Below, piece by piece: positions 2,940-53,877 of a stretch of 63,905 bases of DNA. Position numbers and translations under genes: made by a program. Within the stretch, counting starts at the first letter, position 1. Each line of letters begins with the position of its first letter. The stretch is from Stentor roeselii (taxonomy: Eukaryota; Ciliophora; Heterotrichea; Heterotrichida; Stentoridae). The notes under the pieces are model-generated. The model was not told the DNA's origin and made no database searches. It saw only the letters and a program-made list of their open reading frames with translations. The DNA is taken from assembly GCA_006503475.1 (NCBI GenBank), contig RSEH01000268.1, positions 1-63,905 of the forward strand. Reading direction: 5' to 3'.

Positions 2940-4397
2940 TTATTTAACACTTCTATACCTTGCTTTATTTCTCTCAATTTCATCGATTAGTTCTTTTTTC
3001 TTTTGAATTGCTTCGATTTCCTTGAGCCTTTTCTGTTCTTTTCTCTCCTCTTCTAAGAAATTTCTGTATTCATTTTTTTCTGTATTTTTTTTCATAAGTA
3101 TCAATCGGTCCATTTCTTCCCGTTCTTTTTGCTTGTTTTTAATTTCTTCAATCATTTCTTTTTTCGTGGTTTCCTGTTGCGTCCTCTTGTTCTAAATAAT
3201 TTTTACGTTCCTGATTTCTTCCCATTCTTTCCCTTCACAATTTTCTTTCTTTAAGCGAGAGTTTTTTTCAGTCTTTCTTTCATTTCTGCCTAAATCTTTA
3301 ATATTTTTCGGCATTTTTTCCTTTGATGACCTTGAACGATGCTTTTTTTCTTGTTCTAAATTTCTTCCTACTTGAAGTCCGTCTTGGCCGAATGTCGCTA
3401 GTCGGAACTCTTCATCTGGTGGATGTTGGCTCAGAAGGTTTAGTTTCAGATATAGCTGCTCTATCAGACGCGCTTTTGTTGACTTTTTCTCTTCTTTTGA
3501 TACTTTCAGCGGGAAGTCTGGAGATTCTTCTGAATCGAAGGTTTGGATTGGTGATATTGACCTGTCAAGATCGTTTGGTACGGTGTTTAGGTCCATGATG
3601 CTGATTTCTAAGGTTTTTTCTTCTGTTACGATGTTTTCTGATGTCATTAATCTTTTTGTTAGGGTTTTTCGACCTGCTGATTTGCTCTGTTTTACTGGTT
3701 TCAACTTAGCACTTTTTTGAGTAGCTAAAATACTTTGACACAACTCAAAAATCTGAAGTGCAACCCCTTGCAGCTTATTTCTATCAACATTCCTCAAACA
3801 CATCTTGCTATTACTTATAATCCTTTGAGACATCCTTAAACTTAAAAGCACCTCAGGCAGTGCCTTGATAGTAAGCAAAACCTGTCCAGGCCTAGAAAGG
3901 TAAATCTGGAAAATTTCACGTGCTCTGCTATTCGCAAACTGAAGCATTAAATTTTTCTCAAAAATTTCATCAATTTCCGACATCAGTGCCAAAAAAGCCG
4001 TATAAACCTGTTCAGAGTTCATAAAATCCTTCTTCATAAACTCAACACTTCTAATGTTCAGTCCCGCCACAACATGACTAATCGTCTGAGAAGTCTCTTG
4101 AAGCACTTCTGAAGAAATCACAAGACTTTCAGCTGTTTCATTTAATGGCTTTATTGAGCGGGTACTGTTTGATACTTTCAATGGGTGAGCTGATGCCTTG
4201 GGTTTGATAAAACTTGTGAATTGACAGGCATGAGCAGTTTTTCCTGTGATTAAAGGGTTCAAGTTTTCAGTGGAGGAACTTCGGGAATTTGGGGAAAGAT
4301 TTCGCTGATTCAGATCCTTTCTTAGAATTTTACGTCGGAGAGTCCGACTACTCGAGGTCCTTGACAAGTCAGTTTTAACGATTTCTGCATGTTTCAT
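2940..4397 (-). CDS. Unknown coiled-coil protein, two exons joined by a 15-nt intron
   Basis: Exon 1 is 3207-4397 and exon 2 is 2940-3191. The 15-nt intron at 3192-3206 contains the in-frame TAG that would otherwise end the protein. Splicing gives about 480 aa ending in TAA. The N-terminal third is Ser/Arg-rich and probably disordered (SRTSSSRTLRRKILRK). A helical region spans about residues 95-220. The last 100 residues are very rich in Lys, Glu and Arg (NKQKEREEMDRLILMKK), typical of a single long charged helix. Both exons share this charged composition across the junction, which supports the splice. No family is recognised. A cytoskeletal role is only a guess. Confidence 0.75.
3192..3206 (-). 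other. 15-nt intron
   Basis: On the minus strand it reads GTAAAAATTATTTAG, phase 0. It starts with GTAA, ends with TAG, and carries an in-frame stop if retained. Removal joins EEIRN to NKRTQQE with no frame change. Confidence 0.85.
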
Positions 4398-4591
4398 TTT
4401 GAATTTAATAAGTTGATAAAATTTGAAAATGACTAACGAATTCTAAGCAAATTAGAAAAATCAAAATTCAGAAAAAAAACAATTTTCTCCAATTCTTTTG
4501 AAAGCTCTTACCCAAAAAGCAATCATTAAAAATCATCAAAATCTTCATCAATATCATTCTCTTTACTTCTCTTCCTTCATATTCTCTAAAA

Positions 4592-8056: not shown

Positions 8057-8070
8057 AATAACCTCAGAAG

Positions 8071-10129: not shown

Positions 10130-10705
10130 TTTTATTGGGAGGACTGGAGTTGGAGGTCTGGGGTTGTTTAGGAACTTTGAGAAATGGATTTATGATCATG
10201 GAGTGATTGTGGATAAGTTTTGATGGATCTTGAATTGTTTGTTGTTTGAAAAAGGATCTATTGAAAAGTTATCTGGAATGAACAAGGACTTAATGTGATT
10301 GGAATGGTAGAAATGAAAATTTTATAAACTTTAATACTCAGATTGACCTCTTCTCTTCACAGATCATCTAAAATAAACCAATAAAAAATCCTAAAAATCT
10401 ACAGTCAACAAATACAAAAGACCAACAATCCTGAATCAAAAATCTCCTGAAATAAACATCAAAACCCATCACGCCTAACACTGAAAATAATCTGCCGAAA
10501 TAAACCCCTTCCTGATCCAAACTTCAAAAATCCTTCAAATCCCTCAAAATCTATTCCTTTCAAAGCCAAATCAAAGAACTTATAAAAATCCTAATCCCAT
10601 TCAATCCATTTTCACTCTAAACTCGCCAAACCCCAGTTATTGCATAAATATGGTCTTCTTCAAGAGGGACACTCAGACATCTTGAACTGATATATAGATA
10701 TAAAT
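10130..10705. promoter_or_regulatory. Divergent promoter region, TBC and ZIP genes
   Basis: This 576-nt stretch separates two diverging start codons. No gene, RNA or repeat is seen. Its left 100 nt are G-rich and C-poor on the plus strand. The right part is strongly C-rich: by hand count 10381-10560 has 50 C and 9 G. A TATATAGATATAAAT stretch lies directly before the ZIP ATG. Confidence 0.55.
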
Positions 10706-11611
10706 ATGTCATTCGCAACCGAGATCAAAGTAATTTTTATTTTCGTTATGTTCTTCTCGGCAGGCATGGCAGGATTCCTCATCATTGCCTGCAAAAAGCT
10801 TCAGCAAAGCGAAAAATTCTTAAGTTTCGGGAATTGCTTCGCGGCTGGGATCTTCTTGTTGGTTGGAGTGGTTCATCTGTTGAGAGAATCGCAAGAAGGC
10901 TTTGAAGAGGCCTTAGGAGAAGAGATTCCTTTGGGGTACATCGGGGCTATTGTGGGATATACGGTTATCCTTTGTGTTGAAAATATTTTGCTTGGAGGAC
11001 ATGACCACTCTATGCATAGGGATGAAGTTTCGGGACCTGTAGACGAGATCTCGAAGACTCCATTCACTGTGGTTAACAAGACTCCTTTTAATGGAGACTT
11101 TCAACCGGGTAACCCTGACCACGAATGCGACAATCAGAACTGTGTTGTGACTAGCCCTCCTTCAAAGCACATCGATACCATGCCAGGGATTGTCCTAACA
11201 TGCGCATTAGTGATTCACTCCATTTTAGAAGGTGTTGCAGCAGGAATCATTTCCTCAGAATCAAATTTGGTAATTCTCTGTATTGCGATTTTAGTTCACA
11301 ACATCCCAGCGGCCTTTTCCCTTGGAGTGAAAATCACAGGCTTGACTACTTTCTGGAAAACCTTCTTGATGCTTTGCTTTATTAGCTCCTCCCCACTAGG
11401 GATTGCGATTGGAATAGGAATCTCGACTTTGAACTACCCGATCGTTCAGGCGATCTTTCTCAGTTTGAGTGCTGGAACTTTTATCTACATCGGATGCACT
11501 GAAATCCTACCAGAGCAGTTCCATGAAAAGTCTAACAAATGGCTCAAATTTACTGGATTTTTGACTGGCTTTGTGCCTTTAGCGATTCTTTCGTGTTTAG
11601 TTCATGAATAA
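10706..11611 (+). CDS. ZIP family zinc/iron transporter
   Basis: The protein has 301 aa with eight predicted membrane segments and a His-containing loop between segments 3 and 4 (GGHDHSMH, about 97-104). Segment 4 has the ZIP signature HSILEGVAAG (His171, Glu175). Segment 5 has HNIPAAFSLG (His198), where many ZIPs have HKxxE or HExPHE, so the metal pair is of the HN type. Segment 7 has CTEILPEQF. ZIP proteins bring zinc, iron or manganese into the cytosol across the plasma or organelle membrane. Substrate and location cannot be told from sequence. ATG at 10706, stop TAA. The gene converges with MCM10. Confidence 0.92.
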   Translation: MSFATEIKVIFIFVMFFSAGMAGFLIIACKKLQQSEKFLSFGNCFAAGIFLLVGVVHLLRESQEGFEEALGEEIPLGYIGAIVGYTVILCVENILLGGHDHSMHRDEVSGPVDEISKTPFTVVNKTPFNGDFQPGNPDHECDNQNCVVTSPPSKHIDTMPGIVLTCALVIHSILEGVAAGIISSESNLVILCIAILVHNIPAAFSLGVKITGLTTFWKTFLMLCFISSSPLGIAIGIGISTLNYPIVQAIFLSLSAGTFIYIGCTEILPEQFHEKSNKWLKFTGFLTGFVPLAILSCLVHE

Positions 11612-16815: not shown

Positions 16816-19509
16816 TTATCCAAAAGACTCACTCGAGACTTCTTGCTCCTGAGAAGTGACTGCTTCACTTATATACTCCTGGTTCAGCATACGTCTCACA
16901 GGCCCCATGCCTTCAATGTCCCGGCTGAGGTTGCTTGAAGCGACCTGGTCAATCAAAAACGGTCGATTCGCGACTTTTTCAGTGATTTCCTGAAGTTTTG
17001 CCTTATATTCATCCTCGTTTTTCTTCATTTCTTGTTTCCTTGCTTTTACTTTTTCATCATAAACTGAAGAAAGACTGAACTTTTTAATAGTTCCTGCTTT
17101 TTTCATAGCTTTTTTCATCATTTCATGCTTAGCTCGTCGAGCTTCTTCTTCCAAGACGATTTTTTGTTTTTTTTCCTTGACCCTTTCGAAGTACTCTTGC
17201 TTTGCAGAGACCATATCTTTCATCTTCTGGGTAGTTGCAGGGACTACTTTCGGCCTGGCATAAGCAGAAGCAGGTCTTTTCTTTCTTGGCTTTTCAGCCC
17301 AGTTTTCTTTAGCAACATCAGGAAAGTCAAGCATTTTCAGCGCGTCTTCAGTCTTCTGCGCTTCATGAAAGTGAAAAGGAGCGGGGACTGTAGGAGTGTA
17401 TCCTTTTTTCTTATCCAACAAGGCCTTCGCGAACTGCTCTTGAAGACTGGCGAAGTCAGGAACAGGTCCCGCTTTGAAGGTGTTTGTTTTGAAGTGAGTT
17501 TGAGTTCTTGGATTGTGGTTCATTTCTTTCATTTCTTTTAATTCTTTTAGTTCTTTTGCTGCGGCTTCCATTCGAGCTGGCATCTTCGCAAGGGATAAAG
17601 TATGACGCGCCATTTTACTTATCCGGTCCTTTCTAAGGACTTCTTGCTGCTCGAATTCAGTTTGACGGTCAATTTTTACGAACCAAGGCACTGGGTTCGC
17701 GTGAAACACGTGAATCGGCTCTTCTGGGGTCTTGGGAGGCGGCTTTGCTAGGTCTCTGATGTAGAAACTGAAAGGTTTTTCTAAACTTTTTGTTAAGGCT
17801 TCGAATTGGGTTTTGAGGACTTGTCGCCGTTGTTCTTGCTCTTCCATGACTAGCTTGAAAAGAGGGATTTTTACTTCTGGAGGCACTGGCTTTGCTCTGA
17901 ACTTGTTGCTTAGTTCTTTGTCGATTATGTCTTCTTTTGATTGAAGCATCTCTTTTAAACGGCGCTCGCGGATTGATGGCTGCTTTATTGAATCGCGTCT
18001 CATGAAGTTGAAAGGAGCTGGAACTGTTATTTTGTAACGGAAACCCAGAGGAGGCCGGATGTCGGAGGAAAGGATTGGAATGTCCTCGTCTGGACGACCT
18101 TGGATTGAGAAATAACGAAGGAACTCTTCCCAGGTTAACCATTCTGGAGCTTCTGAACGGATTCGATGAAGGAGCTCTTCGAGGGTTTCACTAGGAAGAC
18201 TCGGCAACCCTTGCGGTGACCTAGCTTCAACCTGCAAATTTTCCTGAATAAATTCATCATCAAGTAGCCTAGAAACAAGTTCAACAGTGCCAGCCCTTCC
18301 TTCTCCACCTTCTGCACCTTCTGCACCCTCTGCACCCTCTCCACCCTCATGCCCTTCATCGCCTTCATCAACCCTTTCTTCAATTTCCCTAAACACCGCC
18401 TGAGCAGCTTTAATAATTTCAACAGGAACAACAAATTCCAAAACCTCAGGAGGTTCAAAAAGTTTAACAAGCATCTCAAGAGAAAGTTCTTCTTCACATT
18501 CATTAAGCGCTCTCTGAAAGTCTTGAACCGACTCAAACAAAACAGGAGGCATCTGCAAAACATCCAACAAGTCAGCCTTGAGCCAATCCTGAACCGCCTG
18601 GCAAAATCCGTTCTTTCCAAGTGATGCACAATCAGAAAGCACGTATTTATCTAAAAGAAATTCAAGTTTGTACTTCAGTTTCAAGCCTTGACCAGCATTT
18701 GCCTCGACCTGGTCTAAAAAGATCTGCCTTGATTTGAGCAGGTTATTTTTAGAGACCTGGTAAAACTGAAGAAATTCGTCAATATTTATAAATTCAAGAT
18801 TTCCGATGTTTGCAACGATTTCAGTCACAGCGGCTTGAGAAACACTTTCATCGACTCCAAATAATTCACCAAGAGTCGGGTTTTGAATTAATTCATTGAC
18901 AAGAGTATTTTTCATGAGTTTAGTTTCAGTTCTTTTCGTAAGTCTCAAATACTCTTCCCTTAAAAACCTAATAATTTCAGGTTCTTCCCAAGTAAAAGGC
19001 CGGTTTTCTTCATTTTCTACTCTTTTTGCATATTTTTCACTGAGGTACTTTTCGAAGTTCTTTTCATAAATGACTTTTTTCAGAGGGGCGATATTAGGTT
19101 TCCCTTCTTTTTTATTCATGTAACCGAATTCAAGTTCAGGGCCAGGGTCGACCCCTCGACCATAGGTGGGGTAATCAAGTTTCGCCTCTTTAGAAGACCC
19201 GGCAGGTCTTGACTTTTCTTCATCTTTCGTTAAAACTTTTGACTTAATATTGCAGGACTTTCGATAGTCCAGAACTTTTTCAGGTGTTCTGAAAGTTTGA
19301 ATGTTAGACCCGCCAGTTTCTCGAAAAGTCACGTTTTTCAAGGAATTTGCCTCGTTTTTCAGATCTTGGAGGTTAGATTGCAAGGAAAAGATCAAACTTT
19401 TCCCGTAGTCTGAATCTGTTGGGTCGAGGTTGGAAGGGAAGCGGATTTCGGACTGGTAGCTGAGGTTGGATTGTTTGAATTCGCTTAAGGACAAATGGAA
19501 AGCCGCCAT
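16816..19509 (-). CDS. FAM161-family ciliary/centrosomal microtubule protein
   Basis: The protein has 897 aa. Residues about 490-720 match the FAM161 (UPF0564) domain: KFRAKPVPPEVKIPLFKLVM, QRRQVLKTQFEAL, KPFSFYIRD, FHANPVPWFVKI, then FKAGPVPDF and PTVPAPFHFHEAQK. The repeated F+A+PVP phrases are typical. FAM161 proteins bind microtubules at basal bodies and the connecting cilium and belong to the centriole inner scaffold, which fits a ciliate with thousands of basal bodies. The N-terminal half is helical and has a Gly-Glu-Ala tract (about 385-402) coded by a 9-nt repeat. The C-terminus is a basic coiled coil. GC skew flips inside this gene near 18200. ATG at 19509, stop TAA. Confidence 0.9.
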   Translation of the reverse strand: MAAFHLSLSEFKQSNLSYQSEIRFPSNLDPTDSDYGKSLIFSLQSNLQDLKNEANSLKNVTFRETGGSNIQTFRTPEKVLDYRKSCNIKSKVLTKDEEKSRPAGSSKEAKLDYPTYGRGVDPGPELEFGYMNKKEGKPNIAPLKKVIYEKNFEKYLSEKYAKRVENEENRPFTWEEPEIIRFLREEYLRLTKRTETKLMKNTLVNELIQNPTLGELFGVDESVSQAAVTEIVANIGNLEFINIDEFLQFYQVSKNNLLKSRQIFLDQVEANAGQGLKLKYKLEFLLDKYVLSDCASLGKNGFCQAVQDWLKADLLDVLQMPPVLFESVQDFQRALNECEEELSLEMLVKLFEPPEVLEFVVPVEIIKAAQAVFREIEERVDEGDEGHEGGEGAEGAEGAEGGEGRAGTVELVSRLLDDEFIQENLQVEARSPQGLPSLPSETLEELLHRIRSEAPEWLTWEEFLRYFSIQGRPDEDIPILSSDIRPPLGFRYKITVPAPFNFMRRDSIKQPSIRERRLKEMLQSKEDIIDKELSNKFRAKPVPPEVKIPLFKLVMEEQEQRRQVLKTQFEALTKSLEKPFSFYIRDLAKPPPKTPEEPIHVFHANPVPWFVKIDRQTEFEQQEVLRKDRISKMARHTLSLAKMPARMEAAAKELKELKEMKEMNHNPRTQTHFKTNTFKAGPVPDFASLQEQFAKALLDKKKGYTPTVPAPFHFHEAQKTEDALKMLDFPDVAKENWAEKPRKKRPASAYARPKVVPATTQKMKDMVSAKQEYFERVKEKKQKIVLEEEARRAKHEMMKKAMKKAGTIKKFSLSSVYDEKVKARKQEMKKNEDEYKAKLQEITEKVANRPFLIDQVASSNLSRDIEGMGPVRRMLNQEYISEAVTSQEQEVSSESFG
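18301..18350 (-). repeat. 9-nt minisatellite inside the FAM161 gene
   Basis: On the plus strand about five degenerate copies of CTTCTGCAC or CCTCTGCAC follow each other. They encode the Glu-Gly-Ala-Glu-Gly tract on the minus strand. It is in frame and probably length-variable. Confidence 0.8.
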
Positions 19510-19618
19510 TGTTTTATTATAACCATTGTCTATTTAAATTATGAGATGATTGAGTGAAGAGGTTGTTTGGGTAATAAAGATATAAAGGTTCTTTTTTAAT
19601 CGATTCACATTAGCACCC

Positions 19619-20444: not shown

Positions 20445-23400
20445 TTATTCATTTGATTTTTGGGGAATATTTTTCGATTGTTTAGTAGATTTTTCGGAGG
20501 AATTTTTTTCGGTTTTTGGGGAATTTAGATCGATTGTTGAATAGATTTCTTGGAGTAAATTTTTTTGGTTTTCATCATTGTAGTTGGGATTTGACATTAT
20601 CTTTTCGGATCTTTGTAAATAAAATTGTCCAACAGATGTTTCATTTGATTCATGATTTAAATAAATAATCGCAAGTTTTATCAAGATTTTTGTGTGAATT
20701 TCCATATCACAATTAATTTCTTTCCTCAAAATTTTTGTATCTAAATCTATTAAAATATCGTTTGATTTCGTATAATTGCAAATAACTATGTAAAATTCTG
20801 CTAAATCCAATAATTCATATAATAGTGATTCTTTTTCGTTTTCATAGACTTGTCTTAAATCATTTTCCAATATATTTAGATCTGTTTGATAGTCATCATC
20901 AGTATAAACTAAAGAAAGCGATTTAAAATTGATAATTTGAAATAAAACTCTTAACTTCTGATCGATTTTAGTATGTTTAGAAATGATTTCTTGAATATAT
21001 TCCACAATCCTTTTATTCATCAATTTTTCATCATTTCTTCTATATCTACCTGGAAAATCAATTTTATATTTTGGTTCCTTGATATATGTTTTTTCTAGAT
21101 ACTCCAAAATTCTTTTCAATAGTTTATGCACCATATCCAGATCAGAAAAAACTGTTTCAGCATAAACTTGAACACAAAACAGAATATTTTCTTCAAAATC
21201 TTTATCTATTTTCATTAAAATCCAGTAATTTGACTCAATAAATTTATACAAGTTTTCATCATCCTTTCTCTGTTCTCGTATCTCTTCAAGAAGTCTAATT
21301 AATTCTGAGCTTTCATCTAGTTTTAAATAAATACGAGTAAGTTTTTTATAAGCATCCGCGATTAATTGCTTACGAGTTTGAAAACTTTTTAAAATATTGA
21401 TACATTTATGTAACAAATTCTTTGCATCATCGAATTTTCTTTCATTATAAAAACATTCAGCCATTGAAAAGTAAACAAAAGCTTTTTCATCAGTTTCTCG
21501 TTCAATAAAACTTTCATATATCTCTAAACTTCTTTGATAATTACTAATAGCTTGTTCGAAGTTATTATTTGAAAACTCAAACGAGGCTTTTACAAAATAA
21601 ATATTGTAAAAAATTAAATTATTTTCAGATACATAGAATTCCTTAAAAGTATTTTCACAATATTGAATATATTCTAATGATTCTTTAAAGTTTTCAAAGT
21701 AAATCTCGACTGATGAAAGCTGCAACTTGATCATTGCAGTGTAAAATTCTTTATTTTTTGAAGATTTTTCCAAAATTTCAAGGGCATTTAAAAGGCTTGT
21801 TTTAGCCGAATCAAACTCTTTTTTATCTATATAAAAATTTCCGTATTCAATTAGTAAATCAACAGAAATAATTAGATGATCTTGATTACTTGATGTCTCT
21901 TGATTATTTAATTGCTTGATTAACTTATTTGCTTTACTTAAAATAGCTTCAGAATTATCAAAATTTCCTTGAATCCGGTAAAGCTCAGCCATTTTTATGA
22001 AGATTGCAACTTGATCCCTTATTGAAAAGCTTTCTTCATTTTCCAAGTTCATGTTTTGGTTTAGTCTTTCGAGATAACAATGAGAAGAATGATAATCGCA
22101 GAGGATATTATAAATTTTTACTAGGTTAAGGTAAACAATATTGAGATAACAATGGGTGGAAACAAGTTGTTTTGAATAGATTTTTTCAGCTTTTTTATGA
22201 AGTTCGATACTTTTTGTGTAGTTTTTTAAGGAATATTCAATTACTCCTATATTAATACATAAAGCTGCTATATCACAAATGTTTGAGAATTTATTAGTTT
22301 CAAAATATTTTAGGACTTTATATAATTTTTGTTTTGATTTTTCTAGTTTTCCTGATAAAAAAGTCAAAATTCCTTTATTTGCATTGTACCACATTGAATA
22401 AATTTCATGAAAATTATTTTTTTTCAAAATATCTTTAATCTCATCAAGATATTTCCTAGCATCTTCAGTATTATTCATCCTTAAATATAAGGAGGCTAGA
22501 TTAAAGTAAATAGAAAGCATTGATAAAATATGTACATTACTTGAATTATTTCTAATTGTTAAGCAATTTCTGATTGTTAAGCAATTTTGAAAAGCTTCAC
22601 AAGCTTCTTTATATTTGTCTTGATTAATATATAAAACTCCTTTATTTTCCAAAATTTCTGATAAAAAGCTTTGAAAATTACTATCCTTTTCGTTGAACTT
22701 TGAGAAAAATTCAAATATTTTTTCAGCATCATTAAAGTTTCCATATAAAATTGAAATATTTGCGAAGTTGAACAAGACATCAAAATAATCAATTTTTAGT
22801 TTCAAGCAATTTGTATTGTAATTCCTTTTTAATTCTTTAATATTCAATTGAATGTCTTTGAGTCCTAATATTTGTAAAGCTTTTCTCATTGAAATTAATG
22901 CTTCCTTGTATTTTCCTGTATATGTTAAAAAAATAGCCCAATTAATAAAATATTTCATTTCTGACTCTTTTCTTTCAAAGTTAATTGGAAATTTATGAAT
23001 CTTTTCGAAGCATTTTTCAGCTTTTTCTATTTCTAAATATTTCATGTGAAGAATTGCAAAATTGAGATAAAGCTTTATAAAAACAGGATGACCTTCTCGA
23101 AAATTGGCTTTGTAAATTTTTTTACTTTCAATAAAATGATTTTCAGCTGATTGATAATTGTTTGCCTGGGAGTAATAAATAGCTATAGTTAAGTGACAAT
23201 CAGCAATTATCAAACTTTCATTCTCTAGAGTATTTTTGTAAATATATAAGCTTTCAAGTGAGTATTTCAATGATTTTTCATAGTTTTGCATAGATTCATA
23301 CATTTCAGCAGCTATTATATATATTCTAGCCATGTCAATTTCTTCATCTTTTATTTTGTTTTTAAGTAACTTTTGTCTATTCAAAAACCTTTTATTAATT

Positions 23401-23912: not shown

Positions 23913-23924
23913 CTTAATTAATAT
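23913..23924. promoter_or_regulatory. 12-nt divergent spacer between TPR and PLD start codons
   Basis: The whole spacer is TAATT/AATTA-like sequence (CTTAATTAATAT) and is nearly its own reverse complement. Any promoter must overlap coding sequence. The same TTAATTAA-type string precedes other start codons in the window. Confidence 0.6.
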
Positions 23925-26801
23925 ATGATCCCTTCCCTGTCAAACTTCCGCCCGAGCGTAACTAAAAAGCTAGTCACTCAGTTTTCAATAGCATCTCAAA
24001 AGTCCTCAAGCGAGCTGATTTTCGTTTTTCAATTCAAATATCAAACAAATGAAAAAAATTACATGTGGCTTCTGCAAAAGACTTACTCTCAGTTCACTCA
24101 TCTTGCGAAAACAATGGACAAGGTCTTCAGTCAAGGCTGGATTGGAGAACCTCCAGGTTTTCCAAACAGTTCAGTATTCAACTTAGCTTCTCTGGAGCAA
24201 AAATTCGAGATTCTTGATTTTTATTTAACTCGTCTGTTACAAGTGTCTGGAGTTCCTAGTAATGCAAGTTTTTTAGAATTTTTAGAAGTTTCAGCACTGT
24301 CCTTTGATGGCACGAGCCAGAAACGGAAAGAAGGATACGTCATGAAAAGGACTGGTGGGCGAATAAATAATGAAAAATTGTGTTGCAATCTTAGTAAGCA
24401 CTTTAAAAGGCTTCAAAAGCGCTGGGTTGTATTGAAAGATAATATGATTGGGTACCTAACCAACAACTCAAAAGATATCTTACATGAAGTTCTAATGTTT
24501 AAAGGCCGATTCGAGGTAAAATATGGAAAATCTTCGACCGGCTACGAAGACGGAGTATTAATAATAACAAACCGAAGAAATCTTCTCTTCCGAGCAGGAG
24601 ACATCCTATCAAGAGACGAGTGGGTGAAATCAATAGAAGAGGCATACCACCAGTCCGAATGGAAGAACTCCCAAGTAAGATTCGAGTCAAGTTTCCCAGT
24701 AAGATCCAGCAACCACGCCCACTGGTTCGTCGACGGCGAAGACTACTTCAACGAAGTTTACAACTCTTTAACCCAAGCAACTCGAGAAGTCTTTATATCC
24801 GACTGGTGGCTTTCCCCTGAGTTCCTCTTGAAGCGTCCAGGTGATTCACATCCAAATTCATCAATATCAGAAGTCTTAGGTTCAATCGCAGAGAAAGGGG
24901 TTCAAGTTTACGTTCATCTTTACAAAGAAGTGACTTTGGCACTATCTTTAAATTCTTTACACAGTAAAAAGACATTAATCAACCGTCATCCAAATATAAA
25001 AGTAGTCCGACACCCGCATCGTTCAGTTGTTGGAAGCCAGTTCCTTTGGTCCCATCATGAAAAAATCATCTGCATTGACCAGGACATCGCTTTTCTCGGA
25101 GGACTTGACTTGTGCTATGGTCGGATGGACAGTCACCAGCACCGGTTAATTGACCAAAGCCCGCCTTTCACATGGCCAGGAATCGACTATTCAAACGTGA
25201 GAGTCTCTGACTTTACAGACGTGGAAAACTTCCAAAGCGACTCGATCGACAGAAGCAGAACACCCAGGATGCCCTGGCATGATGTCGCAGTTAAATTAAC
25301 TGGAAAGGTCGCAAATGATGTCGCTCTTCATTTCATTGAACTTTGGAATCATGTGATGACTGACATCTCGAGTGACTACTGGAAAAAAAAAGACTTGATA
25401 CAGCCTCAGGTCCAGAGCATTAAAGAGACTATTCAGTATGACACGCTTTTAAAATACAACCAGCCTGAAAGTCCCAGAGCCTCTCAGTTCATCTCGAAGT
25501 TCACTGGACTTTCCAAAAGCTTCTGTGTTAACCAGAGATTCGACGTCTCTGCCTTGGATAGACTTGAAGATGAACCTGAAGCTCCTACTTCACTTGTTAA
25601 ATTACTTTCAAATGAAAGTAACACCTGGATTTATAAGGCTAGTCTTAAGACTCCTACTCTTAGGGCTACCTTGTCGAGGACTATTCAAAAGGAAGATTTG
25701 GAGGATTTGGATGAAATGATTTTTAAGAATGAGGTTGAAGCCGATATTAAGATGGGAGATGAAATTTGGGCGAAAAATTTATTGTTACCGAAAATTGACC
25801 AAATGGCGAAAACTGGAACTTGTAAGTGTCAGATTGTTAGAAGTGCTGGAACTTGGAGTTTGGGACTTGATAAACCTGAACATTCTGTGCATTCGGCTTA
25901 TTTGAATATGATTGAAGCTGCTAATCATTTTATTTATATTGAAAATCAGTTTTTTATTTCTAGGACTGCTGGAAAACCTGTTAAGAATAGCATCTCGATT
26001 GCTCTTATTGAGAGAATCAAAATTGCTGCGGTTGAGAAACAGAAGTTTAGGGTTATTGTTGTTATGCCTTTATTGCCAGGCTTCGAAGGAAAAATAGACA
26101 GCAGTTCAATCCTAAAAGCTCAAATGCACTGGCAATACTCTACAATCTGCAGAGGAATCCTCTCAATAATCAAGCAGCTCAAAAAAGACAAATCAATAGA
26201 AAACATCGACGATTTCATCTCCTTTTACTCATTACGAACACATGCCTTGCTAAACGAAATTCCAGTGACCGAGATGATTTACGTCCATTCAAAACTAATG
26301 ATAATCGACGACAAGACCGTGATAATCGGCAGTGCAAACATCAACGACCGCAGCCTTCTCGGCAACAGAGACTCAGAAATCGCAGTAGTGATCACAGACA
26401 AGTTAAAAATAGACTCAATAATTGACGGTCTTCCAGTACAAGTAAGTAAATTCGCTCATAGTTTACGAATGCATCTTTTTCAAGAATTCACTCAATGTGA
26501 GGACCTAAGTCTTTTGGTCGACCCACTCAGTGAAAAGTTTTGGAACTTTTGGAAGACCACAGCTGAAAATAACACTTTTTGGTATCGACATGTTTTTAGA
26601 TGTGTTCCGGATAATAATGTTCAAAAAATCGACCAACTTGATGAGTTTGAAAGAGGAGGATCTTTACATGAGTACCAAAAATTAAATGAAAATGTGAAAG
26701 GGTTCTTAGTTGAGTTTCCTTTGGACTTTCTTAAAAAAGAGTCATTGAAAATAACGATTTTTAATAAAGAGTACCTGTTGCCTGAGGAGAATTTTGTTTA
26801 A
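23925..26801 (+). CDS. Phospholipase D, PX-PH type (paralogue 2)
   Basis: The protein has 958 aa with the same order as the PLD at 5135-8056: PX-like domain (about 30-125), PH-like domain (about 134-242) and two HKD motifs, HHEKIICIDQDIAFLGG (His378, Lys380, Asp385) and VHSKLMIIDD with GSANINDRSLLG (His788, Lys790). Both are complete. Shared phrases such as ITDWWLSPE/ISDWWLSPEF, WPGIDYSNVRV and FYSLRNHGLL/FYSLRTHALL show a gene duplication, now about 16 kb apart in opposite orientation. The central insert is shorter than in paralogue 1. Product would be phosphatidic acid. ATG at 23925, stop TAA. GC skew flips inside the gene near 26080. Confidence 0.95.
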   Translation: MIPSLSNFRPSVTKKLVTQFSIASQKSSSELIFVFQFKYQTNEKNYMWLLQKTYSQFTHLAKTMDKVFSQGWIGEPPGFPNSSVFNLASLEQKFEILDFYLTRLLQVSGVPSNASFLEFLEVSALSFDGTSQKRKEGYVMKRTGGRINNEKLCCNLSKHFKRLQKRWVVLKDNMIGYLTNNSKDILHEVLMFKGRFEVKYGKSSTGYEDGVLIITNRRNLLFRAGDILSRDEWVKSIEEAYHQSEWKNSQVRFESSFPVRSSNHAHWFVDGEDYFNEVYNSLTQATREVFISDWWLSPEFLLKRPGDSHPNSSISEVLGSIAEKGVQVYVHLYKEVTLALSLNSLHSKKTLINRHPNIKVVRHPHRSVVGSQFLWSHHEKIICIDQDIAFLGGLDLCYGRMDSHQHRLIDQSPPFTWPGIDYSNVRVSDFTDVENFQSDSIDRSRTPRMPWHDVAVKLTGKVANDVALHFIELWNHVMTDISSDYWKKKDLIQPQVQSIKETIQYDTLLKYNQPESPRASQFISKFTGLSKSFCVNQRFDVSALDRLEDEPEAPTSLVKLLSNESNTWIYKASLKTPTLRATLSRTIQKEDLEDLDEMIFKNEVEADIKMGDEIWAKNLLLPKIDQMAKTGTCKCQIVRSAGTWSLGLDKPEHSVHSAYLNMIEAANHFIYIENQFFISRTAGKPVKNSISIALIERIKIAAVEKQKFRVIVVMPLLPGFEGKIDSSSILKAQMHWQYSTICRGILSIIKQLKKDKSIENIDDFISFYSLRTHALLNEIPVTEMIYVHSKLMIIDDKTVIIGSANINDRSLLGNRDSEIAVVITDKLKIDSIIDGLPVQVSKFAHSLRMHLFQEFTQCEDLSLLVDPLSEKFWNFWKTTAENNTFWYRHVFRCVPDNNVQKIDQLDEFERGGSLHEYQKLNENVKGFLVEFPLDFLKKESLKITIFNKEYLLPEENFV

Positions 26802-29554: not shown

Positions 29555-31021
29555 TTAATTTTCTTTCTTACTTTTAAGAACTTGTTGCAAATTAAGAGCG
29601 TTTATCAATTTTTCAACGTTTTCATGTTGACTGATCACTGAGTCGATTTCTTTCGTTGCCTCTTCTTCAGACTTGATGAGTTCTTCAAGGCGGTCGCCGA
29701 TGTAATCAATGTCGATTATCTCTTTCTTAATGAAATTGATGTCAGAAATCAACTTATGCTCCAATTGCATCACCATCTCAGTCGGTGACAAGTATTTTGA
29801 AGTGCTGGCGCTTTTTCCTCCTAATAAATGAATTTGTTTCTTCATAATGGCTGCGGCGACGAAGAGATTTCTTAGATAATTTGGTTTATCTTTATGAATA
29901 ATCAGTCTTTTGAGGGCAAAGACGCTTTTAATCACGTTGCTCGCGTTGTTTCGATAGTCGATTCCTCTTCGTCTGTTGCGAATCATGTAAAATGCTTTGC
30001 TTTGTTCTTTTGAAAGCATCGTGGCGATGTTGAGAGCGACGATGTAAAGAGAAATCGCCACAAGTGATATGGCAGCAGTCAAGACCATGATGAATCTACC
30101 CAAGTGAGTGCTGGGGTAGCCGTCGCCATAGCCGATGGTGCACATAGTAACAATAGCGAGCCAAAAGCCATTTGTCAAGTAATCAAAATCAAGAGAAGAT
30201 TTCGAATCCGACACATACGGCCGTTCCAAGTTCCTCACAGCATATCCCATAATAAGCGCTATCATTCCTATCGTAGGAATCAATACCAGCTGCGGTTGAA
30301 ACTTAAGGTCAGACTTGAGTGAAAACCAAAGAGTAGGCGCAACATTCAGTTTTTTTCCTAAATCATACGCTTCAGAGCTCATCCATATAGAAAAATACGA
30401 GTAAATCCTCACAATTTGAGTAATTCTCACCATCGTAATGATAGAAATGATGATATCGATTGAATAAGTATAGTGCCCATTAAGCATACTTCCTGAAAAC
30501 GTGTAGTCCAGGTAAGGTGGACAAAATATTCCCATGATCAGCATTTCAAGAAACATCTTCGGAAGCATTCCCGCTGATCGAAGACTGTCTGTTTAAGATT
30601 TACCTTCAGGAGAAAGCAACTTGCGGACTATCATTATCTTCAGGTCGTAGATGTAGTGCTTGTAAATGAAAAAGACTGAGTATTGCTTACGAAGAAATAT
30701 TGACAGAAAGATGTTTACTGTTCGAAGAAGTGTCACTGTTGAGTTACTCTCGTTTCGCTTCTTGGTGATTGACTCGATCCCGTCTTTTGTTTCTTTTTTC
30801 TCGTGGTAAAACTCTTCTGAGGCGAAATAAACAATGAAGGTTGAGGATATCGCTATTAGGTTTAAAATCACGTCATTTATGAATTGACGTTTTGAGAGTG
30901 AGGATGAAACGTCGTTTCGATGTTTTAGAGAAAGCTGGGAACGTAAGTCGTATATTTTTCCTGAGTAGCTTATGTTTTGGTTGTGGTCTAACTTGGTGTG
31001 CTCGTCTGGGTTGATTGACAT
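29555..31021 (-). CDS. Potassium channel, SK/six-TM type, two exons
   Basis: Exon 1 is 30604-31021 and exon 2 is 29555-30588, joined over a 15-nt intron to give 483 aa. Six membrane segments are visible. The selectivity filter is TIGYGDGYP (about 290-298), a canonical K+ filter, followed by the inner helix. S4-like segment (MVRITQIVRIYSYF) has only few charges. After the pore the basic helix IRNRRRGIDYRNNASNVIKS is placed as the calmodulin-binding region of small-conductance Ca2+-activated (SK) channels. SK assignment is inference from layout. The channel would sit in the plasma membrane and link Ca2+ to membrane potential, which controls ciliary beating in ciliates. Confidence 0.88.
30589..30603 (-). 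other. 15-nt intron in the K+ channel gene
   Basis: Minus strand reads GTAAATCTTAAACAG, phase 1, with an in-frame TAA if retained. Removal joins KLLSPE-D-SLRSAGMLPKM and links the first hydrophobic segments to the pore-bearing exon. Confidence 0.9.
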
Positions 31022-45712: not shown

Positions 45713-46203
45713 ATTTTCAGGTGTTTTAGTGAAAAGTAGATTTTTTGGGGAGGTTGATACTGTTTGGATGGTTTTGAGAATATTTTTTTAGGTTTTTATG
45801 ATGACTTGGAATTTGATCGAGGGATTTATCAGACTTTAACGAGATGATGAATAAAGAATATAATTTTTAATTAAACTATTGAAGAAGAGTGAATATAATT
45901 TATAATAAAATTGTTGAAGAGTAATGAAAAAACTGTAAATATAACTAAATTTTAATCATTCTTTTCTGAGCCCTACTGAAAAATCCTGAAGACCTAATTA
46001 TTAATCTAACTAATATCATAATCATTTAATCTAAACTCTTAATATTCTATTCTCATCCGAATACCAAAACCTTAAAAGTACCAGTTCATCTTAACACTTC
46101 CCTAAACCCTTAATAATAAAGCCAATCCAAACCTTCTCCTTACACCCTGCGAAATCCTTAAACTACTCAAGCAAATCAACCTCCAACATAAAAATCTATC
46201 TAC
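45713..46203. other. Convergent 3' spacer with short direct repeat
   Basis: This 491-nt stretch holds no open frame worth calling. The left third is G-rich, the right half C-rich on the plus strand. Two adjacent imperfect 35-nt repeats lie at 45856-45890 and 45891-45924 (both hold GAATATAATTT and TTGAAGA). Confidence 0.5.
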
Positions 46204-46467: not shown

Positions 46468-47250
46468 ATGTTTAGCAAATTCGGGAAAGTCCTATCATAC
46501 CAATTCCACATTCTTCTTTCAAAAGACGAAATCCTATCAAACTCGAAAACGAAGACAAAAAAGCGACGAAAGTTCATAAAACCTGAAAAAGACTCTCTTT
46601 CAACGAGAGACAACGATAACTCCTCAGCGACTCCAGAGTTGAAGCCACCAAGTCACATCTTCAGATCACAGAGCCGAGATGACTTTTACAAGACTATCGG
46701 AAAGCCCCAGGGTCCTCCAGTGGGTTACTATAACTGCAACTATTCCTGTGTCACCAAGTCACCAAAATCTGCAGTTTTTAAAAAACGGAAAAAGACTGTC
46801 TCGAGGATTAGAACTCCAGTCAATGATGCTCCTCACTTTTTAACTCATGTTGACAGACCTAAGACTCCTGGGGTTGATTTCAAAAAACAACTGCCCAGGA
46901 ATAATATCTTTATTGCACAACTTAATGAAAATCGATTTGTCAGCTTCAAGAATATGCCTGAAGTCTGCTCGAATTTTAGAAGAGCTGGAACTCCTGATAT
47001 TGGAAAAGTCAGTGCAAGGCCTAATGTCTTGATTAACTCGTCGATTAGTTTGAATTCGTATAATGTGGACTTTCGATTTGTTAAGGAGGATTTGGGCAAA
47101 GTGATTGATTTTAATAAGTGCTCACCTAGAAAGCCTTTGTTTGAAGGGAAGAAAGATTTACGGTCATACGAGATAAAGTGGAACTGCATCGACAAGAAAA
47201 AGTCAGTAATCGACTTCAACAAAACTTGCCAATCCCCCAAACCCTCATAA
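46468..47250 (+). CDS. Unknown basic protein, 260 aa, with repeated DFxK motif
   Basis: ATG at 46468, stop TAA. The protein is basic and Pro/Ser-rich. A short motif recurs in the C-terminal half: VDFKKQLPRNNIF (about 136), VIDFNKCSPRKPLF (about 211) and VIDFNKTCQSPKPS (end). Short repeats of this kind occur in microtubule-associated proteins of ciliates, so an axonemal or cortical role is possible, but this is inference. No known domain is found. Only 4 nt separate its stop from the next ATG. Confidence 0.65.
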   Translation: MFSKFGKVLSYQFHILLSKDEILSNSKTKTKKRRKFIKPEKDSLSTRDNDNSSATPELKPPSHIFRSQSRDDFYKTIGKPQGPPVGYYNCNYSCVTKSPKSAVFKKRKKTVSRIRTPVNDAPHFLTHVDRPKTPGVDFKKQLPRNNIFIAQLNENRFVSFKNMPEVCSNFRRAGTPDIGKVSARPNVLINSSISLNSYNVDFRFVKEDLGKVIDFNKCSPRKPLFEGKKDLRSYEIKWNCIDKKKSVIDFNKTCQSPKPS

Positions 47251-51081: not shown

Positions 51082-53877
51082 ATGTCGATATTTGAAATAA
51101 TCACACCTTATGTGCCAGAGCTAATCGGGGTACTTTGCTTCATCATCGGGTACTTCTTGTTAGACACCTTCAAACCAGCTGAAGACCCCTTAACCCCTGA
51201 CCTCATTGAAAAGCAATCTCCAGAAACTCAACTAGAAAAATCTTTAACCTTCTGCAAAACCTCTGAAAACGTTTCAATCAGTCACTTCAACGAAATCCTC
51301 AAAACCTGCCAAGAAAGCAAAAATCTTGAAAAAACTTTCGAAGTTTTTCAATGCATAAAATCAAGCCACTTGTCTCCAGATATTCAAACCTTTGAAATCC
51401 TGGCGATTTCTTTATTCGAGCACAAAAAGTACCTCGAAATTCTTGAAATAATAACCCCGGGTTTTCCAGGTTTTTCAATAAACGAAACTTTGCAGTCAGT
51501 TTTCATTGACTGCTATTGTCGCACCTTTCAAGTCGAAAAAGCGGTTCAAATATTTGAAGCGAGTCTTGTGAAGGAAAAGATATATTTGAAACTTGCGAGC
51601 AACTTGATTAAAGCGAATCAGCAGGAAAGACTTTTCTGGATGATTGAAACTTATAAACCTGGAACTGCAGGATTTGAAGGAATTTTGGAAACTGCTTGTA
51701 AATTTGAAAGCTGTGGATTGATTATTCAGCTGTTGAAAGACAACCGGGCGATTTCGAAGTCGGTTTATATGAATTCGGTTAAATGTTTAGTGAAAAACTC
51801 GTTTTTAGAACCTGCTTTTGAACTTATCAACAGATGGAAGGGAATGGCTGATGATTCAATTATTTGCTTTTTCCTTGAACACTGTGGAAAACAGGGAAAA
51901 TTTGAACTTTCGATGCAGGTTGTTCAGGATTTCTTGCAAGATAAAATAGAAATTTCGTTGTACTCTGTTAATTTGCTTCTTGATTTAAGTGTTAAAAGTC
52001 AAAATCATGCAGAGTTATGGCAAGTTGCTTTGAAATTGGCTAAATCTGAACTTGTTCCTGATAGTTTCTCGTATTCTTGCATTGTTAAGTCAATTAAAAT
52101 GGAAGGCGAACATACTGATTTGGAAAAGGCTTTTGAATTTTTAAGTTACTTGAAAAATAGAAAAGTCGCTCAATATGATGAAATTTTTTATAATTGTTTA
52201 CTTGATGCTTGTGTCATGTCAAAAAAAATTGAAAAAGCACTAGTTTTGTTTGAGGAAATGGAAAAACTTGATGAAATTTCTTATAATACTATTATTAAGG
52301 GATTTAGTATGACGAAACAAGTTGATAGGGCTATTGAAACTTTGAAAAAGATGAAGGATAATGGAATCGGACCCACTGCTGTCACTTATAATTCTATTAT
52401 TGATACATGTGTCAGATGCTCTCAAGTTGCAATGGCTTGGGAATACCTCGAAGAAATGCAACAACGAGGTCTTCATCCCGACAACTTCACCTATTCCACC
52501 CTAGTAAAAGGCATAAAAGGTGAAAACAGCATTCACGAGCTAAACCGTATCTTTTCTATTCTCGAAAAAGGTAAAACCTCTCCCGATGAAGTACTCTACA
52601 ACTGTCTAATAGACGCCTGCTCAAGAATGGGTGACACAGTTCGTTGCGTAGAGATTTTCCAACAGATGCAAAATAGCAAAATCGAGGCAAGTTCAGTGAC
52701 TTACGGAATAATGATCAAAGCATACGGCCAAGCCAATATGCTGCCCAAAGCTTTGGGAATCTTTAACGAGATGAACTCGAAAGGTCTCAAAGCGAACGAT
52801 GTGACTTACGGTTGTTTACTTGATGCTTGTGTCAAGTCTGGAGACATTGAAATGGCTGAAAAACTGTTTTTTTCTATGCAGTCAGAAGGTATTGTTTTGA
52901 ATACTATTCTTTATACTACTATGATTAAGGGATTCACCAAGTCACAGAATTTGCCAAAGGCTTTGAATATGCTGAAGCAAATGAAAGTATCCGTGCAACC
53001 TAATAATGTCACTTATAATAGTCTTCTTGACTGCGCTGTTAGGTGTGAAGATATGCAAACTGCCCATCATTTGTTTGATGAAATGAGAAGTTTAATGATA
53101 CCTGATTTGATTAGCTACTCTACTATGATTAAGGGTCTTTGTAAAGCGGGAGAAGTTGAAGCTGCTCTTGAGATCCTAACAACAATGCGCAAAAGCGACA
53201 TCCAACCCGACGAGGTTTTGTTTAACTCATTACTAGACGGATGCGCCAAGTTAGGCAACTTAGAAATTGCCGAAAAGGTATACATCGATATGAAAAGTTT
53301 AAACATCAAGCCAAGCAACGTGACTTACTCAATCCTCATAAAACTTTACGGCAAAAACAAGCAAATCAGCAGAGCCCTTGAGGTCTTAGACGACATGAAA
53401 CTAAACAAAGTGCAACCAGGTCTGATAGTTTACACTTGTTTATTGCAGGCTTGCATCAGATGCAAACAAATCCACAAAGCAATCCAGATTTATCACGACA
53501 TGAACCGAACTGGCCTGAAAGGTGACAGAGTCACATTCAATACTCTCGTCAATGGATGTGTTTATGCGAAACAACTGGAAACTGCCTTTCAAGTCGCTGT
53601 TGATAGCTTTGGACTTGGAGTTAAACTAGCTGAAGATGTTTACAATAATTTAGTCAAAAATTTGATTAATTCGAAAATCAGCTCAAAGGTCTCTATGGCG
53701 AATGAGGTTGTTGAACATATGAAAAAAATTGGAGTTGTTATTGACCCGGCTTTGGTTTCTATTTTGGCGAATGCGAAAAGTACTCGGGTTAATTGTGAGA
53801 ACTCAGGATTTGCTGCAGGGAAGAAAGTTTATTCTAAAAAAGTGGCTATGGGTGAAAGGAGTTTTAATATTCACTAA
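51082..53877 (+). CDS. Long pentatricopeptide repeat (PPR) protein with N-terminal membrane segment
   Basis: The protein has 931 aa. An N-terminal hydrophobic segment (IGVLCFIIGYFLLDTF, about 13-29) precedes the repeats. From about residue 70 to 880 it is built of roughly 35-residue PPR motifs, best in the second half, for example VTYNSLLDCAVRCEDMQTA and ISYSTMIKGLCKAGEVEAAL. Repeats alternate between a DACxR-type and an xMIKGxxK-type helix, giving a 70-residue dimer period. PPR proteins bind single-stranded RNA one base per repeat, mostly in mitochondria. The hydrophobic start could be a mitochondrial inner-membrane anchor or an uncleaved targeting signal. GC skew flips inside the gene near 52440. 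Stop TAA. Confidence 0.92.
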   Translation: MSIFEIITPYVPELIGVLCFIIGYFLLDTFKPAEDPLTPDLIEKQSPETQLEKSLTFCKTSENVSISHFNEILKTCQESKNLEKTFEVFQCIKSSHLSPDIQTFEILAISLFEHKKYLEILEIITPGFPGFSINETLQSVFIDCYCRTFQVEKAVQIFEASLVKEKIYLKLASNLIKANQQERLFWMIETYKPGTAGFEGILETACKFESCGLIIQLLKDNRAISKSVYMNSVKCLVKNSFLEPAFELINRWKGMADDSIICFFLEHCGKQGKFELSMQVVQDFLQDKIEISLYSVNLLLDLSVKSQNHAELWQVALKLAKSELVPDSFSYSCIVKSIKMEGEHTDLEKAFEFLSYLKNRKVAQYDEIFYNCLLDACVMSKKIEKALVLFEEMEKLDEISYNTIIKGFSMTKQVDRAIETLKKMKDNGIGPTAVTYNSIIDTCVRCSQVAMAWEYLEEMQQRGLHPDNFTYSTLVKGIKGENSIHELNRIFSILEKGKTSPDEVLYNCLIDACSRMGDTVRCVEIFQQMQNSKIEASSVTYGIMIKAYGQANMLPKALGIFNEMNSKGLKANDVTYGCLLDACVKSGDIEMAEKLFFSMQSEGIVLNTILYTTMIKGFTKSQNLPKALNMLKQMKVSVQPNNVTYNSLLDCAVRCEDMQTAHHLFDEMRSLMIPDLISYSTMIKGLCKAGEVEAALEILTTMRKSDIQPDEVLFNSLLDGCAKLGNLEIAEKVYIDMKSLNIKPSNVTYSILIKLYGKNKQISRALEVLDDMKLNKVQPGLIVYTCLLQACIRCKQIHKAIQIYHDMNRTGLKGDRVTFNTLVNGCVYAKQLETAFQVAVDSFGLGVKLAEDVYNNLVKNLINSKISSKVSMANEVVEHMKKIGVVIDPALVSILANAKSTRVNCENSGFAAGKKVYSKKVAMGERSFNIH

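What the first reader, a model, noticed from the sequence alone, without database searches (positions are those of the whole stretch)
18001..18480. The same skew switch occurs inside coding sequences of both strands
In the minus-strand FAM161 gene, plus-strand G:C is 40:18 in 18001-18120 and 26:81 in 18241-18480. In the plus-strand PPR gene it is 48:30 in 52201-52440 and 28:48 in 52441-52620. In the plus-strand PLD it is 41:26 in 25861-26060 and 26:45 in 26091-26280. The polarity is again G-rich then C-rich, and codon third bases change with it. So the pattern is a sawtooth of roughly 1 to 2 kb that ignores reading direction. Causes could be regular replication or repair patches, chromatin phasing, or gene conversion.
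Basis: partly seen in the sequence, partly recalled or inferred. Interest (0 to 1): 0.75.

Follow-up and report, generated by a model that had tools for sequence, protein, structure and literature searches.

The report
Sawtooth strand bias marking breakage sites
In the genome of a heterotrich ciliate, silent DNA positions flip abruptly from G/T-rich to C/A-rich at recurrent points and drift back slowly; the pattern looks like a record of places where germline DNA has been repeatedly broken and repaired, though that cause is not yet proven.

Summary
The quoted counts hold to within two letters. In 261 kb of this genome, silent third bases carry a strong local strand bias, G+T (K) against A+C (M), that synonymous-codon shuffles do not reproduce. 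With 200-nt flanks, abrupt steps of z>=5 number 32 K-to-M and 4 M-to-K (16 and 0 at z>=6); shuffles reach |z| 4.96. Contig C1 carries most of this; the window alone gives 3 and 0. K-to-M is sharp, each side keeps its bias for 300-400 nt, and the return is gradual. Spacing is irregular. A K-to-M switch is its own reverse complement, so 'ignores reading direction' proves nothing.

The organism is a heterotrich ciliate (somatic assembly, standard code). Best explanation: recurrent germline double-strand breaks with 5' resection, the exposed 3' strand losing C and A by transitions. Polarity and bases match yeast resection clusters and resemble human meiotic hotspots. No break map exists, so the cause is inferred. 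Main rival: the points are sites of eliminated germline sequences. The literature searches showed no earlier report of such a pattern.

The parts
17418..18184 (+). keto-rich (G/T) flank, left of the switch in the minus-strand FAM161A/B ORF
   Evidence: silent keto residual +0.14 to +0.45 per 120 nt; Pfam FAM161A_B E 1.4e-55
18184..18184 (.). abrupt K-to-M switch inside FAM161 ORF 16816-19533(-); posterior-mean position 18186
   Evidence: scores 33 (all sites) and 35 (silent sites only); position
18185..18617 (+). amino-rich (C/A) flank; includes the cited 26:81 stretch
   Evidence: residual -0.24 to -0.56; counts
25601..26070 (+). keto-rich flank in PLD ORF 23922-26801(+)
   Evidence: residual +0.40 to +0.65; PLDc, PX and PH domains
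26070..26070 (.). abrupt K-to-M switch inside the PLD ORF
   Evidence: scores 62 and 67
26071..26440 (+). amino-rich flank in the PLD ORF
   Evidence: residual -0.45 to -0.66
52442..52442 (.). abrupt K-to-M switch inside PPR ORF 51025-53877(+); posterior-mean position 52411
   Evidence: scores 41 and 44; position; PPR_2 E 4e-121
53173..53173 (.). second K-to-M switch in the same PPR ORF, not in the finding
   Evidence: scores 45 and 47
3697..3697 (.). strong K-to-M switch inside ORF 3192-4442(-)
   Evidence: scores 56 and 60
10332..10332 (.). highest-scoring K-to-M switch of the window, between divergent ORFs 9344-10189(-) and 10691-11611(+)
   Evidence: all-site score 72
30144..30144 (.). K-to-M switch inside ORF 29555-30592(-)
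   Evidence: scores 42 and 45
45922..45922 (.). K-to-M switch outside the called ORFs
   Evidence: all-site score 48
47183..47183 (.). K-to-M switch near the 3' end of ORF 46465-47250(+)
   Evidence: all-site score 54

Best explanation
Each abrupt K-to-M switch marks a place in the germline (micronuclear) DNA that has been broken on both strands again and again over evolutionary time. After each break the 5' ends are resected for about 300-450 nt, leaving 3'-ended single strands: the + strand on the left, the - strand on the right. On the exposed strand C turns into T and A into G (deamination, or errors opposite C and A during fill-in), so over time the left side becomes G/T-rich and the right side C/A-rich, sharply divided at the break and fading outward. 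Meiotic (Spo11) breaks are the likeliest source. Shown here: the sawtooth, its polarity, its transition-like signature, its presence in silent and noncoding DNA, its damping at constrained codon positions, its concentration at gene boundaries of every orientation, and one hit of the Spo11/TopVI-A family in the genome. Inferred: that breaks exist at these points, that they are meiotic, and that they lie in the germline nucleus.
For: Polarity: steps 32 K-to-M v 4 M-to-K at z>=5; bootstrap of the third moment excludes zero (99% interval 0.03-0.46). Shape on held-out sites: plateau about 0.35 to 250 nt, zero at about 450 nt, sharp centre; M-to-K gradual. Strict in-ORF switches: 68 against a null mean of 2.8, placed to about 16 nt. 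Signature: C and A fall, T and G rise on the K strand (third bases of Gly, Ala, Val, Thr, Pro codons, M zone to K zone: A .39 to .21, C .25 to .09, G .10 to .20, T .27 to .50; zones there include the site itself, which inflates slightly). The R/Y axis has almost no autocorrelation in the window (|r| at most .007), so mainly transitions. With the site and its 4 nt neighbours left out, T in C/T boxes is .78 in K zones v .34 in M zones. Mutation filtered by selection: keto fraction .66 v .34 at codon position 3.534 v .468 and .471 v .424 at positions 1 and 2. K-to-M step at gene boundaries: convergent .24 (n 28), tandem .18 (n 59), divergent .26 (n 24); the gaps run from K to M too, the convergent ones within error. 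Literature: yeast single-switch clusters have mutated C left and mutated G right, as 5' resection predicts (PMC6786661, passages). Human meiotic hotspots: strand-asymmetric flanks with C>N and A>N on the forward strand, G>N and T>N on the reverse; the Fig. 1 legend puts single-stranded DNA left of the break on the forward strand (PMC7615360, passages; the left/right reading of the mutations is mine). Spo11/TopVI-A family TP6A_N: one hit, E 3.9e-18. A very low vegetative germline mutation rate in Tetrahymena, 7.6e-12 (PMC5585995, abstract), leaves room for a break-linked process to dominate.
Against: No break map, polymorphism or germline sequence was available. With 200-nt flanks and a moderate threshold, in-ORF switches of both polarities are equally many (70 v 70). 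No GC3 rise at the scale of the flanks, as GC-biased conversion at hotspots might give. Human hotspots lack asymmetry in the central 100 bp either side and include C>G and C>A; here the centre is sharp and transversions are minor. The density, about one strict switch per 2.1 kb, is high for meiotic hotspots. 67 of 121 strict switches lie inside ORFs, whereas many organisms break mainly at open promoters (recalled). Of 8 paralog pairs at 59.8% identity or more, 6 have similar profiles (r .41-.74) but only 3 exceed every shifted control; 27 more diverged pairs average r about .15. So positions turn over.
Confidence: 0.47

Rival explanations
1. The switches mark places where the germline genome carries internal eliminated sequences (IESs) that are missing from this macronuclear assembly; repeated cutting, transposition or special chromatin at IESs in the germline mutates both flanks with opposite strand polarity.
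For: Blepharisma stoltei, another heterotrich, has about 40,000 IESs in a 41 Mb somatic genome, about 70% of them intragenic against 77% genic DNA (PMC9942856, abstract and passages; genome size from PMC9942806, passages). The switch density here is of the same order (one strict switch per 2.1 kb) and they too are less frequent in ORFs than the DNA is (67 of 121 v 75%).
Against: No TA excess at 83 in-ORF switches placed to about 17 nt (1.82 v 1.73 per 30 bp; about 16 of the 83 expected false), though heterotrich IES ends are heterogeneous. IES excision happens in the developing somatic nucleus, whose mutations are not inherited. A PiggyBac excisase was not found, but no control genome rang.
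Confidence: 0.2
2. Strand bias of replication: switches are closely spaced origins with a reversed mutation bias, or sharp termination points.
For: Replication makes sawtooth keto skews in other genomes (N-domains in human DNA, recalled).
Against: The usual polarity is the opposite one (abrupt amino-to-keto at origins, recalled). The bias falls to zero within about 450 nt and then reverses, which would need replicons near 1 kb used in nearly every cycle.
Confidence: 0.1
3. Transcription-linked bias: short convergent sense and antisense transcripts, or RNA:DNA hybrids, expose one strand.
For: Coding strands are amino-rich at ORF starts (about -0.15) and keto-rich at ORF ends (about +0.12), and a K-to-M switch reads the same way on both strands, so orientation cannot exclude it.
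Against: Long ORFs carry several teeth (PPR has two switches); divergent promoters and convergent ends show the same step, so no simple transcription unit fits.
Confidence: 0.12
4. Protein or codon-usage effect, or chance runs of amino acids.
For: Amino acids do vary with the zones: Cys, Gly and Val up in K; Ser, Pro, Thr and Gln down.
Against: Shuffling synonymous codons within gene and box removes the steps; DNA outside the called ORFs shows them; first and second codon positions move much less than third positions.
Confidence: 0.02

Closest known systems
Strand-switching mutation clusters at resected double-strand breaks in yeast (PMC6786661, passages)
   Same: One strand mutated left of the break and the other right of it; the same C-left, G-right polarity; [quoted passage not shown]
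   Different: Those are clusters of new mutations in yeast after many breaks, with a mutagen or APOBEC acting on single strands; here it is a standing compositional pattern across a genome.
Strand-asymmetric mutation at human meiotic hotspots (PMC7615360, passages)
   Same: C and A are the mutated bases on one strand, G and T on the other; flanks of about 2 kb; tied to resected single-stranded DNA.
   Different: Seen as rare new mutations; includes C>G and C>A, off-centre peaks 700-800 bp away and no asymmetry in the central 100 bp either side. Here transitions, a sharp centre and flanks of about 0.4 kb that have reshaped codon usage.
Replication N-domains / bacterial GC skew (recalled)
   Same: Sawtooth of G+T against A+C excess.
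   Different: Opposite abrupt polarity and a scale of hundreds of kb to Mb rather than about 1 kb.
Subtelomeric purine skew of gene-sized ciliate chromosomes (Nyctotherus, PMC2633312, passages)
   Same: A composition bias tied to DNA ends in a ciliate, symmetric on both strands.
   Different: Purine axis, near telomeres, about 70-130 nt; here keto axis and chromosome-internal. 16 chromosome ends here show only .516 and .534 keto in the last two 100-bp bins.

Membership tests
double-strand-break resection asymmetry | polarity: C-strand loss left, G-strand loss right | tested here: met
   K-to-M 32 v 4 at z>=5, 16 v 0 at z>=6; in ORFs 58 v 20 with 100-nt flanks but 70 v 70 with 200-nt flanks at score >=30
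double-strand-break resection asymmetry | single-strand type base signature (C and A both lost) | tested here: met
   third bases of Gly/Ala/Val/Thr/Pro codons: C .25 to .09 and A .39 to .21
double-strand-break resection asymmetry | decay over a resection-sized tract on both sides | tested here: met
   plateau to 250 nt, zero at about 450 nt, on held-out sites
double-strand-break resection asymmetry | physical breaks at the switch | not testable with these tools
   no germline break data held
meiotic recombination hotspot | GC-biased conversion around the centre | tested here: not met
   GC3 residual around 70 strict in-ORF switches: +.035 (s.e. .012) within 25 nt only, then -.010 to +.022 out to 800 nt; no rise over the flanks
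meiotic recombination hotspot | Spo11 present in the genome | tested here: inconclusive
   TP6A_N one hit, E 3.9e-18; the family also holds topoisomerase VI A, which the archaeal controls hit; not separated further
IES insertion site | TA at the junction | tested here: inconclusive
   no TA excess, 1.82 v 1.73; heterotrich ends are heterogeneous (PMC9942856, section heading and passages)
IES insertion site | germline-limited sequence at the point | not testable with these tools
   assembly is macronuclear; one capped 10 kb query showed no germline copy
replication N-domain | abrupt amino-to-keto jump at origins | tested here: not met
   the abrupt polarity is the reverse; the N-domain rule is recalled
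macronuclear chromosome end / fragmentation site | same keto bias at real telomeric ends | tested here: not met
   16 ends: keto .516 (s.e. .015) and .534 (s.e. .012) in the last two 100-bp bins, against .60 in noncoding K zones

The most novel reading that the evidence does not exclude
The somatic genome of this ciliate carries a readable fossil map of thousands of long-lived germline break sites, at 10-20 nt resolution, written in synonymous codons by single-strand mutation; break position, not the gene, sets much of local codon usage and part of amino-acid usage.
Probability: 0.45. Interest if true: 0.9.

Novelty: new variant of a known kind. Interest (0 to 1): 0.8.

Why it matters
If the break reading holds, germline break sites could be mapped from a plain genome sequence in an organism where neither meiosis nor the germline genome is easy to study, and the stability of such sites over evolution becomes measurable. 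It would also mean that codon usage, and to a degree protein composition, is set by distance to a break point, which would mislead selection tests and codon-bias analyses in such genomes. Even if breaks are not the cause, a kb-scale sawtooth with one abrupt polarity needs an explanation that the skew models I know of do not give.

Tried and rejected
Rejected or weakened: (1) chance or protein composition: removed by the synonymous-shuffle control. (2) Strict 1-2 kb periodicity: the autocorrelation has one negative lobe at 400-700 nt and only a weak rise at 1.5-2 kb, which may reflect gene spacing (not tested). (3) Chromosome ends or fragmentation sites as switch points: 16 telomere-bearing ends show little bias. 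(4) A sequence motif at switches: none. GC is mildly enriched and A-tracts depleted; the 4- to 6-mer leaders (GCGC, TGCGCA, AGTAAC) rest on 3 to 6 of 83 events and similar scores occur at M-to-K controls. GC is itself a K-then-M word, so part of this can be an artefact. (5) GC-biased conversion: a first test used relaxed calls; repeated on strict calls it shows no rise over the flanks. (6) Continuity of the bias across gene boundaries: correlation 0.11 over 72 boundaries, inconclusive. (7) My first relaxed switch lists were withdrawn as counts: 220 K-to-M calls against 189 in the null, and 111 in-ORF calls against 96 in the null. Densities and the in-ORF fraction use the strict lists (121 v 12.9; 68 v 2.8 in ORFs). 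The profiles (word counts) used relaxed lists and are diluted. (8) Paralogs: 35 pairs compared. Of 8 pairs at 59.8% identity or more, 6 have profile r .41-.74 and 2 do not (-.20.24); 3 of 8 exceed every shifted control (largest shifted r .25-.81). The other 27 average about .15 (range -.54 to .74); shared ORF-end profiles may add to this. Suggestive only. One of the eight tubulin ORFs (L025) was cut short by my start-codon rule and dropped out.

Full report
What was checked. The six base counts in the finding are right to within two letters. The switch is G-rich then C-rich on the + strand; I measured it on the keto axis: G or T (K) against A or C (M). Genes were taken mechanically as non-overlapping stop-to-stop ORFs of 150 aa or more, so 'noncoding' here may hold some unannotated coding DNA.

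Is it more than chance? For every silent third base I took K or M minus the mean of its codon box. In the window (30 ORFs of 250 aa or more) this residual is autocorrelated on the keto axis: r about 0.06 at 6-30 codons (z 25-27 against 200 within-gene synonymous shuffles), near zero around 100 codons, negative at 151-300 codons (z -21 to -29). The GC-content axis is weaker and the purine axis almost flat. I then added contig C1 (157 kb) and 40 kb of contig C150. Over 261 kb, 135 ORFs and 65,824 silent sites, the autocorrelation is positive to 300 nt, most negative at 400-600 nt and near zero at 900 nt; noncoding DNA is correlated with neighbouring silent sites.

Polarity. With 200-nt flanks, steps of z>=4, 5, 6 number 59, 32, 16 for K-to-M and 33, 4, 0 for M-to-K; 30 synonymous shuffles gave 0.6 and 1.0 at z>=4 and never exceeded |z| 4.96. 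With longer flanks the two polarities even out (300 nt: 71 v 74 at z>=4, 46 v 27 at z>=5; 600 nt: 62 v 84 at z>=4), as a sawtooth requires: both kinds of change occur, but K-to-M is the abrupt one. By contig at z>=5: window 3 v 0, C1 25 v 4, C150 3 v 1; at z>=4: 8 v 5, 47 v 22, 3 v 6. C1 carries most of the polarity evidence, and the z>=4 count of C150 goes the other way. E. coli K-12, 50 kb, gave no peaks. Inside ORFs of 1.2 kb or more (150-nt flanks, z>=4) there are 25 v 4 in + ORFs and 9 v 3 in - ORFs; 300 nt away from ORF ends 22 v 2 and 4 v 1, the last not significant. A likelihood caller inside ORFs gives 58 v 20 (100-nt flanks, score >=20; null 10.6 and 10.2) and 25 v 5 at >=25, but 70 v 70 with 200-nt flanks at >=30 and 35 v 14 at >=40.

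Shape. Peaks found on C/T codon boxes and measured on 4-fold boxes show +0.27 to -0.31 across the switch in neighbouring 100-nt bins. Peaks found on half of the sites and measured on the other half give a plateau of about 0.35 to 250 nt, zero at 450 nt, then the opposite sign of the next tooth; M-to-K crosses zero slowly. Strict in-ORF K-to-M switches (68 against a null mean of 2.8) are placed to about 16 nt, M-to-K ones (67 against 3.3) to about 28 nt.

Density. A relaxed caller gave 220 K-to-M events, but its null gives 189; I withdrew it as a count. At the strict threshold 121 K-to-M are seen against 12.9, and 68 M-to-K against 10.8; at score >=40, 65 against 1.4 and 11 against 1.2. Strict spacing: median 1.4 kb, mean 2.1 kb, CV 0.85. 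So there is no clock. 67 of 121 strict switches lie in ORFs, while 75% of the DNA is in ORFs; noncoding bases weigh more in that caller, so part of the difference may be detection.

A point about logic. The reverse complement of K-then-M is K-then-M. Any process, gene-linked or not, that makes K-to-M on one strand makes it on the other. 'It ignores reading direction' is therefore not evidence. What does bear on it: ORF starts are M-rich and ORF ends K-rich on the coding strand, so convergent, tandem and divergent boundaries all show K-to-M steps (.24.18.26; n 28, 59, 24), and the gaps themselves run from K to M in all three classes (tandem .102, divergent .089, convergent .065 with s.e. .043). 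Long ORFs carry additional teeth.

Mutation or selection? In the outer quintiles of the local field (the site and 4 nt on either side left out) the keto fraction is .66 v .34 at third positions.604 v .428 in noncoding DNA.534 v .468 and .471 v .424 at first and second positions. T in C/T boxes goes from .34 to .78. This grading by constraint is what a mutation bias filtered by selection gives, and not what a sequencing artefact gives. The changes are mainly transitions: C to T stronger than A to G; purine content at Gly/Ala/Val/Thr/Pro third bases moves only from .49 to .41. A-to-G depends on context (reversed before C). Proteins feel it: Cys, Gly and Val are commoner in K zones; Ser, Pro, Thr and Gln in M zones. 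The Gly-Glu-Ala run of FAM161 at 18241-18480 lies in a zone that is K-rich on its coding strand.

Which organism? CCCTAACA repeats occur 220 + 327 times (overlapping tripled units; listing capped), and the 16 places that I fetched lie at contig ends. GTA..AG spans of 15 nt number 360 against a mean of 295 (265-341) at 24 other lengths from 11 to 35 nt, and TGA is a true stop (0 of 14 TGA-ended ORFs of 250 aa or more extend 60 codons or more). Blepharisma has the same telomere repeat and 15/16-bp introns but reads TGA as tryptophan (PMC9942806, passages); heterotrichs have about 95% 15-bp introns (PMC11441545, passages). So this is most likely a heterotrich macronuclear assembly with the standard code, Stentor-like (recalled); the species is not identified.

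Mechanism. Two known settings share the polarity or base choice: resected breaks in yeast (mutated C left, mutated G right; PMC6786661, passages) and human meiotic hotspots (C>N and A>N on the forward strand, G>N and T>N on the reverse, with single-stranded DNA left of the break on the forward strand; PMC7615360, passages). A break with 5' resection exposes the + strand left and the - strand right, so loss of C and A from the exposed strand gives K left and M right, sharp at the break and fading outward. Replication origins give the opposite abrupt polarity (recalled). A Spo11/TopVI-A family gene is present. Vegetative germline mutation is very rare in Tetrahymena (PMC5585995, abstract), so a break-linked process could dominate the mutation budget; that step is inference.

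Against. GC3 shows no rise over the flanks of strict switches (+.035 within 25 nt only), no motif was found, and there are no break data. Macronuclear chromosome ends are not strong switch sites. Blepharisma's 40,000 IESs (PMC9942856, abstract and passages) have a density of the same order and a similar depletion in genes, so IES sites are the strongest rival; the lack of TA excess speaks mildly against it. Paralogs share profiles in 6 of 8 close pairs (3 of 8 beyond every shifted control) and on average weakly when diverged (27 pairs, mean r about .15): switch positions seem long-lived but not permanent, or the closeness reflects shared ancestry.

Novelty. From their listings, and the passages read, I saw no report of a kb-scale sawtooth of silent-site strand bias in a ciliate or at stable break sites. 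Listings were capped, and subscription journals and most preprints are outside that library. The ingredients are known; the genome-wide standing pattern appears to be new.

Noticed in passing
window 46204-46398 (-): Small ORF that reads like ribosomal protein S30 (name recalled); C302:83035-83249 matches window 46192-46407 at 88% DNA identity.
   Followed up: no
window 9333-9347 (-): A 15-nt intron-like GTAAG...AG interrupts an ORF that looks like a TBC-domain protein (domain recalled, not searched).
   Followed up: partly
window 5135-8077 (-) and 23922-26801 (+): Two phospholipase D paralogs, 43% identical over 414 aligned residues (Pfam run on the second only); their silent-site profiles do not match (r -0.24).
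   Followed up: partly
window 20445-23939 (-): Very AT-rich (about 25% GC) 1164-aa ORF, TPR-like by eye (not searched). The sawtooth is weaker in the lowest GC3 quartile of 59 blocks (0.024 against 0.05-0.06); the rank correlation is .34, and .21 (p .14) without C150.
   Followed up: partly
G000 contig C40: A contig with telomere repeats at both ends: apparently one complete 250 kb macronuclear chromosome.
   Followed up: no
strict in-ORF switches in window, C1 and C150: GC dinucleotides enriched (1.47 v 0.91 per 30 bp, z 5.2) and A-tracts depleted (0.34 v 0.65, z -3.4) at 68 strict K-to-M points but not at 67 M-to-K points.
   Followed up: partly
silent sites in K zones of window, C1 and C150: The A-to-G bias depends on the next base: strong before G and A, weaker before T, reversed before C; no mechanism assigned.
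   Followed up: no
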